A DNA stretch of 37,808 nucleotides from a candidate division WOR-3 bacterium. GTDB taxonomy: Bacteria; Hydrothermota; Tepidihabitantia; SM23-42; JAOAFX01. The position numbers were made by a program, and so were the translations under genes. Shown piece by piece: positions 11,585 to 37,808 of this stretch (positions are counted from its first letter, which is position 1; every line of letters begins with the position of its first letter). The stretch covers positions 1 through 37,808 of the forward strand of contig JBDRWD010000018.1 of assembly GCA_039802205.1 (NCBI GenBank), given 5' to 3'. A model generated the notes under the pieces. That model saw only the letters and a program-made list of their open reading frames with translations. It did no database searches and was not told where the DNA came from.

Positions 11585-11645
11585 CGGTAGTTGCAACCTT
11601 CAGGTTGCGCTACCTTTCTTAGCGCGGGCTAAAGCCTGCGGCTAC
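11585..11645. repeat. Pair of interspersed GGTAGC-type hairpin repeats
   Basis: First hairpin: GCAACC-TTCA-GGTTGC flanked by GGTAG and CTACC (11586-11613). Second: GCGGGC-TAAA-GCCTGC flanked by TAG and CTA. The first is the same design as GGTAGCCGCACCC-TTCA-GGGTGCG at 37745-37769. They directly follow the peptidase gene and may also end its transcript. Confidence 0.65.
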
Positions 11646-11686
11646 CATTTTACCGATTGCCACCCGAGAGAGAATCACTAAAGTGT

Positions 11687-11776
11687 TGCCCTACAAAAGT
11701 ACCTAACGCTAAATCATTGATTACCCTTACAAATTTTGTCCATGAGTTTAATCGTTACTTCATAAGATATAAAAAA
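11687..11776. repeat. Interspersed repeat, copy 1
   Basis: About 90 bases starting TGCCCTACAAAAGTA and containing ACGCTAAATCATTGATT. They match 24951-25041 with scattered mismatches and a 2-base gap. Non-coding; it lies between the hairpin repeats and the tRNA-Arg promoter. Confidence 0.7.
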
Positions 11777-11793
11777 CTCATAGCATCGAATTG

Positions 11794-11821
11794 TTGACTT
11801 TTGTTGTAATTTTTATATAAT
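11794..11821 (+). promoter_or_regulatory. Promoter of tRNA-Arg
   Basis: TTGACT 11794-11799 and TATAAT 11816-11821, spacer 16. The predicted transcript begins about 8 bases before the tRNA. Confidence 0.75.
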
Positions 11822-24571: not shown

Positions 24572-24599
24572 ATTATATATATCTCTTGGAAAAAATCAA
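24572..24599 (-). promoter_or_regulatory. Promoter of the small-protein / Asp-box operon
   Basis: Minus strand TTGATT (24599-24594), spacer 16, TATAAT (24577-24572). The ATG is 18 bases past the -10, with AAGGAGG between. Confidence 0.7.
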
Positions 24600-24662
24600 T
24601 TGCCATCATTCCTGATTCTTCTCCACTGCTATAAAAGGTTTGTCAATAAATTAAATTCTTAC

Positions 24663-24691
24663 TTTACATCCCCCTTTCTTCAGATTATAAT
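24663..24691 (+). promoter_or_regulatory. Promoter in front of the candidate structured RNA
   Basis: TTTACA 24663-24668, spacer 17, TATAAT 24686-24691. The predicted start near 24698 is the first base of a closed stem. Confidence 0.55.
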
Positions 24692-24697
24692 TTCTTG

Positions 24698-24790
24698 GTC
24701 CGAATCATACCTAACGGTTAAACCAGACTGCTATACGGTCATATAAGACCAAGGTATCTATTCGGAGCAGCTGGGCTGCCTAATCTTTTT
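24698..24790 (+). ncRNA. Candidate small structured RNA
   Basis: About 90 nt. The outer stem TCCGAAT (24699-24705) pairs with ATTCGGA (24760-24766). It continues as ATACC (24707-24711) with GGTAT (24753-24757). Inside are GGTC-ATATAA-GACC (24737-24750) and a small GGT-TAA-ACC hairpin (24716-24724), making a multibranch fold. The end is GCAGC-TGG-GCTGC (24767-24779) followed by CTAATCTTTTT, a terminator-like signal. A promoter places the start exactly at the stem. No protein gene is nearby on this strand and no known RNA family was recognised (SRP, 6S, tmRNA and RNase P hallmarks not seen). Confidence 0.45.
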
Positions 24791-24791
24791 A

Positions 24792-24842
24792 TTAATCATT
24801 CAGTGATTAAGTGAAGAGAGAGGCTTACCCAGCCATTCTCTT
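24792..24842. other. Two further hairpins after the candidate RNA
   Basis: TTAATCA-TTCAG-TGATTAA (24792-24810) is a perfect 7-bp stem. AAGAGA-GA-GGCT-TACCC-AGCC-AT-TCTCTT (24814-24842) is a two-part 10-bp stem with a symmetric internal loop. They could belong to a longer RNA than 24698-24790 or be separate elements. The rest of this 568-nt gene-free stretch (24554-25121) holds promoters, the repeat at 24901 and nothing else I can name. Confidence 0.4.
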
Positions 24843-24900
24843 TCTCGCCAGACAAGTAGCATAATCAATCTGCTCACGCAACATATAATAAACAAAGATA

Positions 24901-25041
24901 GTGCGAGATACCCTAAGATTTAAAAACATTTATCCGCAGGCTAAAAACCTTGCCCTACAAAAGTATTCAACGCTAAATCATTGATTGTCCTTACAAATCT
25001 TGCTCATGAGTTTTTTATCGTCCCTTCATAAAATATAAAAA
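24901..25041. repeat. Interspersed repeat, copy 2 (longest)
   Basis: The first 44 bases (starting GTGCGAGATACCCTA) match 37765-37808 with two differences. The part from 24951 (TGCCCTACAAAAGTA) matches 11687-11776. So one composite non-coding repeat of at least 140 bases exists in three partial or full copies here. Confidence 0.75.
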
Positions 25042-25087
25042 ATATATGGAGAGGAATCAGCCATCGTTCAAAATAACCATTTTGGGA

Positions 25088-37744: not shown

Positions 37745-37808
37745 CGGTAGCCGCACCCTTCAGGGTGCGAGATACCCTGAGATTTAAAAACATTTATCCG
37801 CAGGCTGA
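37745..37808. repeat. Hairpin repeat plus interspersed repeat copy 3, cut by the window end
   Basis: GGTAGCCGCACCC-TTCA-GGGTGCG (37745-37769) is the hairpin type seen at 11586. From 37765 the sequence matches 24901-24944 with two differences, up to the window end. Confidence 0.7.

What the first reader, a model, noticed from the sequence alone, without database searches (positions are those of the whole stretch)
24663..24842. Candidate new structured RNA with own promoter and hairpin end
A -10 box predicts the start at 24698, where a 7-bp + 5-bp stem begins and encloses two inner hairpins. GCAGC-TGG-GCTGC with a T-run follows, then two more perfect hairpins (24792-24810, 24814-24842). Agreement of promoter position and fold is unlikely by chance. 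It is the best candidate here for an undescribed RNA.
Basis: partly seen in the sequence, partly recalled or inferred. Interest (0 to 1): 0.6.

Follow-up and report, generated by a model that had tools for sequence, protein, structure and literature searches.

The report
Fossil bridge RNA of an IS1111 element
The folded stretch is the guide-RNA ("bridge RNA") part of a decayed jumping gene of the IS1111 kind, read mainly from the opposite strand to the one proposed, and its relatives in the same bacterial phylum show the guide sequences changing together with the DNA sites they target.

Summary
The structure is real and conserved, but it is not a new class of RNA. Window 24628-24898 is the right-hand remnant of an IS1111-type insertion sequence from a candidate-phylum WOR-3 genome. 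It sits 16 bp inside the end of another dispersed repeat, here called B. At least six other 96-98% copies lie in the same genome. In relatives the same region follows a DEDD transposase gene on the minus strand; the window keeps only that gene's last ~25 codons.

On the minus strand, 24699-24839 folds into two loops. Twelve of 27 pairs show two-sided compensatory changes. The first loop carries segments that match the right and left target flanks of each element; permutation gave 0/20000 and 1/20000. The second loop matches each element's own right end (0/20000). This is bridge RNA (seekRNA) anatomy.

Its plus-strand promoter is conserved in seven elements but points antisense to the bridge RNA; that is the one open, possibly novel point. 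The window copy lacks a left end and a transposase, so it is a relic. New member of a known kind.

The parts
24612..24627 (+). End of dispersed repeat B (CTGATTCTTCTCCACT; consensus CTGAGTCCTCTCCACT) = right target flank of the insertion
   Evidence: Empty B copies with CTNAGTCCTCTCCRCT at C5, C19, C41, C50; alignment of ~25 B ends
24628..24630 (-). 3-bp right terminal extension (AGC) beyond the subterminal repeat
   Evidence: Boundary shared by copies C36, C52, C1, C32, C91 and G002
24631..24647 (-). Right subterminal inverted repeat; carries TTGACA, the -35 of the predicted circle-junction promoter
   Evidence: ATAAAAGGTTTGTCAAT matches the left repeat ATAAAACGTTTGTCAAT of relative L026
24628..24824 (-). 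Noncoding region downstream of the transposase stop codon
   Evidence: Same place relative to tnp in all intact relatives
24825..24898 (-). Remnant of the transposase C-terminus (...ARKRMAG stop at 24827-24825); right edge approximate
   Evidence: Homology to C34, C55, G002, G003, G010 transposases
24699..24839 (-). Bridge RNA / seekRNA core (two-loop structured RNA)
   Evidence: Covariance model R1 hit, 164.8 bits, E 4e-36 (the window is in the training set); compensatory pairs
24768..24835 (-). Target-binding loop; stem 24835-24821 with 24781-24768, formed partly by the transposase last codons
   Evidence: Stem kept with compensatory changes in relatives down to ~31% transposase identity
24810..24818 (-). 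Right-target guide CTCTTCACT (CTCTCCACT in most copies), complementary to target AGTGGAGAG
   Evidence: Guide/flank match test, 0/20000 permutations
24792..24810 (-). Hairpin TTAATCA...TGATTAA between the two target guides
   Evidence: Compensatory changes at all four counted pairs
24785..24792 (-). Left-target guide AUAAAAAG, matches the B-side flank ACAAAA-AG with one U-G wobble
   Evidence: Left-flank match test across relatives, 1/20000; B consensus. In this genome alone the match is weak
24700..24765 (-).
24728..24734 (-). Donor guide AUAGCAG, same as the element's own right end ATAGC plus core AG
   Evidence: Right-end/guide match test, 0/20000 permutations
24663..24691 (+). Conserved promoter-like TTTACA-17-TATAAT pointing antisense to the bridge RNA
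   Evidence: 11/12 match; equivalent sites in six relatives
24664..24675 (-). GGGGG-ATG-TAA: Shine-Dalgarno-like purines followed by a start-stop codon pair (here with no proper spacing)
   Evidence: Motif kept in several relatives
24899..25045 (+). Rest of dispersed repeat B, resuming after an internal deletion that removed the left end, most of tnp and ~60 bp of B
   Evidence: Matches to other B copies

Best explanation
The feature is the right end of a decayed IS1111-group insertion sequence. On the minus strand it encodes that element's bridge RNA (seekRNA). In intact relatives the element excises as a circle. The joined ends form a TTGACA/TATAAT promoter, and the transcript runs through the transposase gene into the bridge RNA. 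The first loop of the RNA pairs with both strands of the target through a right-target guide and a left-target guide; the second loop pairs with the element's own joined ends. Together they direct the DEDD transposase to insert at a fixed dinucleotide. Here the target is 16 bp inside the end of a dispersed repeat. Shown: repeat status, linkage to the transposase, ends, covariation, and guide/target and guide/donor matching. Inferred: transcription, strand, RNA-protein complex and transposition. The window copy has lost its left end and transposase, so it is a fossil.
For: Same-genome copies at 96-98%. The DEDD transposase (PF01548, PF02371; NF033542 'IS110 family RNA-guided transposase', 254 bits against a cut-off of 140) lies immediately upstream on the minus strand in relatives. 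Subterminal inverted repeats with 7-bp left and 3-bp right extensions. Empty target sites. 12 of 27 pairs with two-sided changes, 0/500 shuffles. A model built on 7 sequences then hits just downstream of five ~31-40% identical transposases, all on the transposase strand. Right-target, left-target and donor guides match their own element's DNA (0, 1 and 0 of 20000 permutations). Predicted circle-junction promoter scoring 12/12 in four elements. The noncoding-region position, repeat extensions and guide order are those published for IS1111 (PMC11187229).
Against: Strand is not proven. Bare folding energy often favours the plus strand (z -7.6 against -4.7 for copy C36), and a promoter-like site on plus is conserved. 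Wobble counts only lean to minus (G-U 24, A-C 14). The left-target guide of this genome matches only 6 bases exactly plus one wobble. The guide for the left end of the element pairs imperfectly. G128 (L070) shows no clear guide. No expression data. The R1 E-values are rough, and 7 of the hits are its training sequences.
Confidence: 0.93

Rival explanations
1. A plus-strand RNA is made from the internal TTTACA/TATAAT promoter and acts as an antisense regulator of the bridge RNA and transposase mRNA. It would exist in addition to the bridge RNA.
For: Promoter kept at 10-11/12 with spacing 16-18 in six relatives although spacer sequence and length differ; predicted start is at the edge of the fold; the antisense strand folds very stably.
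Against: Absent in L026, L062, L065, L067, L069. TTTACA is the complement of the TGTAAA in a start-stop motif that is conserved more widely, which may explain it. No conserved terminator. No such RNA is described for the family in the papers read.
Confidence: 0.3
2. The bridge RNA itself is the plus strand, driven by the internal promoter, in this clade.
For: Guide matching is symmetric between strands; plus folds better; promoter position fits.
Against: Published IS1111 seekRNAs are supplied and interpreted as the transposase-sense noncoding region (PMC11187229). Wobble counts lean to minus, as do U-G differences in the G002 right guide. On plus the two target guides pair with each other and would be closed.
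Confidence: 0.07
3. An independent new sRNA with its own promoter and terminator.
For: Promoter, fold and hairpin positions agree in the window; no Rfam match.
Against: Repeat copies and relatives tie it to a transposase and insertion ends. The terminator hairpin is a window-specific change. Guides match insertion sites.
Confidence: 0.02
4. Only a hairpin-rich DNA repeat (REP/BIME-like) with no RNA function.
For: Dispersed, hairpin-rich, nested in repeat B.
Against: Compensatory changes across species, and guide segments that covary with flanks and ends.
Confidence: 0.03

Closest known systems
seekRNA of IS1111-family elements (ISEc11, ISKpn4, ISPa11; Siddiquee et al. 2024, PMC11187229)
   Same: RNA from the noncoding region downstream of tnp; subterminal repeats with 7/3-bp extensions; top-strand complement precedes bottom-strand match; circle-junction promoter; a repeat sequence as target, as for ISPa11
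   Different: Here the target-guide loop's stem and, in some relatives, the right-target guide lie in the transposase's last codons. An antisense promoter-like site is present. The window copy is a fragment.
Bridge RNA of IS110 elements (IS621; Durrant et al. 2024, PMC11208160)
   Same: Two loops, one with target guides and one with donor guides, both including the core dinucleotide
   Different: IS110-group elements encode it upstream of the recombinase, and their target guides come in the opposite order. The core here is mostly AG (AC, GA or TG in some relatives).
Fst antitoxin RNA (Rfam RF01797)
   Same: Only sub-threshold Rfam hit, E 0.44, 20.6 bits against a cut-off of 72
   Different: Chance-level; rejected

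Membership tests
IS1111 group of the IS110 family | DEDD transposase with PF01548 and PF02371 in intact relatives | tested here: met
   in the own genome only C-terminal fragments are left
IS1111 group of the IS110 family | Subterminal inverted repeats of ~11-13 bp with 7-bp left and 3-bp right extensions | tested here: met
   in several relatives; the window has the right repeat and 3-bp extension only
IS1111 group of the IS110 family | Long noncoding region downstream of tnp | tested here: met
IS1111 group of the IS110 family | Promoter created by joining the ends | tested here: met
   In silico only: TTGACA-16/17-TATAAT 12/12 in L026, L057, L058, L059; weak in L063, L067, L068, L069
Bridge RNA / seekRNA | Guides matching both target strands, top-strand complement first | tested here: met
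   the order alone does not fix the strand
Bridge RNA / seekRNA | Donor guide matching the element's own end | tested here: met
   Right-end side; left-end side only partial
Bridge RNA / seekRNA | Conserved secondary structure | tested here: met
Bridge RNA / seekRNA | RNA is made, binds the transposase and is needed for transposition | not testable with these tools
   Needs RNA-seq, pull-down and transposition assay
Intact, mobile IS1111 element (window copy) | Left end and full transposase gene | tested here: not met
   internal deletion to repeat B at about 24899
Any Rfam family | Score above gathering threshold | tested here: not met

The most novel reading that the evidence does not exclude
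A clade of IS1111 elements in WOR-3 bacteria carries a conserved internal promoter that makes an RNA exactly antisense to the bridge RNA and the transposase 3' end, controlling guide availability and hence transposition. This would be a layer of regulation not described for this family in the papers read.
Probability: 0.3. Interest if true: 0.6.

Novelty: new member of a known kind. Interest (0 to 1): 0.42.

Why it matters
It adds a set of bridge RNAs from a candidate phylum, with natural retargeting visible in sequence: G122 and G123 differ in the guide exactly where their targets differ. The RNA is absent from Rfam 15, so a covariance model of this kind would stop such regions being called orphan RNAs. 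The overlap of the target loop with the transposase's last codons may explain their conservation and gives a simple test for further members. If the antisense promoter is active, control of RNA-guided transposition becomes testable.

Tried and rejected
Rfam at gathering and relaxed thresholds: nothing but a chance Fst hit. PF02371 in the own genome: no match, because only short C-terminal fragments are left. A two-strand test by guide matching was dropped because the guides are symmetric between strands. A strand test by folding energy was dropped as misleading, since the antisense strand closes the guide loop and folds more stably. The GCAGC/GCTGC terminator was rejected because other copies lack it. 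The idea that the repeat next to the fragment is the element's own left end was rejected: it is repeat B, which occurs alone elsewhere. A transposase structure prediction was not run because sequence models already settle the family.

Full report
What was checked first. The 180 nt fold better than shuffled sequence on plus (z -6.2) and somewhat better on minus (z -2.0). Rfam has nothing above threshold; the one weak hit (Fst antitoxin, E 0.44) is chance.

It is a repeat. In the window's own genome the stretch has seven further long copies at 96-98% identity and one short match. Several end at contig edges, as multi-copy elements do in short-read assemblies. One same-genus genome (G002, a WOR-3 MAG, JAOAFX010000095.1) carries it at 85%, and a same-family genome (G003) and a same-order genome (G010) at ~75%.

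It belongs to an insertion sequence. Copies on C34 and C55 run into an open frame ending ...KVALARKIATIVYYMLR-QIDYATCLARNRMAG. In G002, G003 and G010 this is the C-terminus of a DEDD transposase (PF01548 and PF02371; NCBIfam NF033542 'IS110 family RNA-guided transposase'). The gene is on the window's minus strand. The window keeps about 25 codons, with the stop at 24827-24825, followed by a noncoding region to 24628. Relatives have subterminal inverted repeats whose right copy equals window 24631-24647, with 7-bp left and 3-bp right extensions. Joining right and left ends in silico gives a TTGACA-16/17-TATAAT promoter with 12/12 matches in four elements. These are the published IS1111-group features (PMC11187229).

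Where it inserted. The right flank of the copies is AGTGGAGAGGACTNAG. The own genome also holds this sequence uninterrupted, at the end of a ~272-bp dispersed repeat B, so empty sites are known. In the window, B is split: 24612-24627 on one side and 24899-25045 on the other. An internal deletion removed the left end, most of the transposase gene and ~60 bp of B. Targeting repeats is known in this group (ISPa11 into REP, PMC11187229).

The RNA. Aligned over ten sequences on the transposase strand, the region shows a two-loop structure. 27 pairs were predicted and 12 of them have two-sided changes that keep pairing. Against shuffles, the pairing percentage, the pairs and cells with two-sided change, and the covariation score are matched in 0 of 500, and slid versions collapse. 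The stem of the first loop is built from the transposase's last codons (ATGGCTGGGTAAGCCT with AGGCAGCCCAGCCA) and covaries, for example CTGAGC/GCTCAG in G010 and GGACTGGGT/ACCCAGTCC in G122 and G123. A covariance model from seven of these sequences finds G122, G123 and G135, and then five far more diverged elements (transposases ~31-40% identical). In every one of those five the hit lies directly downstream of the transposase on its strand. Genome-wide over 147 genomes of the phylum it found hits in six (stricter filters).

The guides. In each element with a defined end, the first loop's 5' segment is the reverse complement of the right flank: CTCTCCACT for AGTGGAGAG (own), TTTTATAGT for ACTATAAAA (G003), ATTTTCTGCT for AGCAGAAAAT (G123), TTTCTTCT for AGAAGAAA (G122), GATGAACC for GGTTCATC (G027), CAGGGTCA for TGACCCTG (G126), GACGGTGCT for AGCACCGTC (G065). 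The summed match of true pairings is 109 against a permuted mean of 76.1 and maximum of 98 (0/20000). The 3' segment matches the left flank (81 against 65.1, 1/20000). G002's right guide scores low because it differs by two C-to-U changes, which would be U-G wobbles; own-genome left matching is weak (6 bases plus one wobble to the B consensus); G128 shows no clear guide. The second loop carries the element's own right end plus core (ATAGC-AG, ATAGA-AG, ATAGG-TG and so on; 91 against 68.0, 0/20000). This is bridge RNA logic (PMC11208160), with the IS1111 order of guides. Some elements in these tests are close relatives, so the permutation counts overstate independence.

Strand. Guide matching and folding energy do not decide it: guides are symmetric, and the plus strand folds as well or better in most elements. 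The minus strand is favoured by four points. Published IS1111 seekRNAs are transposase-sense. Wobble pairs lean that way (G-U 24 against A-C 14 over all pairs, 13 against 5 in the target loop). The guides stay mostly open on minus but pair with each other on plus. The junction promoter drives that strand. I put this at about 0.9.

What is left unexplained. The plus-strand promoter is conserved at 10-11/12 with spacing 16-18 in six relatives as well as the window, although its spacer varies in sequence and length. If active, it makes an RNA antisense to the bridge RNA. The same block on the minus strand reads GGAGG-N0-9-ATG-TAA, a start-stop pair kept also in more distant elements that lack the promoter. 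Either could be the selected feature.

Function today. The window copy lacks a left end, and the assembled genome has no transposase beyond C-terminal fragments. It is a fossil unless an intact copy was lost at the contig breaks.

Noticed in passing
window 11623-11821, 24612-24627 with 24899-25045, 37765-37806; loci L073-L108: Dispersed repeat B (~272 bp, at least 25 long copies in this genome, many in sister genome G001) with a conserved end CTGAGTCCTCTCCACT; nature and means of spread unknown.
   Followed up: partly
flanks of B copies; window 24572-24599: Many B ends lie roughly 10-35 bp from an outward-pointing TTGAC motif, as if B sits just upstream of promoters. In the window one end of B is 12 bp from a minus-strand promoter-like site facing the 24125-24553 gene.
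   Followed up: no
window 24664-24675 (minus); L057, L058, L059, L060, L061, L063, L067: Conserved Shine-Dalgarno-like motif followed by a start codon directly joined to a stop (ATG TAA or GTG TAA) between the bridge RNA and the right end; role unknown.
   Followed up: partly
L059 and L061 (G123, G122): Near-identical elements whose right-target guides differ at the bases where their target flanks differ (CTGCT/AGCAG against CTTCT/AGAAG): natural retargeting.
   Followed up: yes
L073 1501-1540 (G000 C5 29123-29161): Two B ends head to head, 7 bp apart, in inverted orientation.
   Followed up: no
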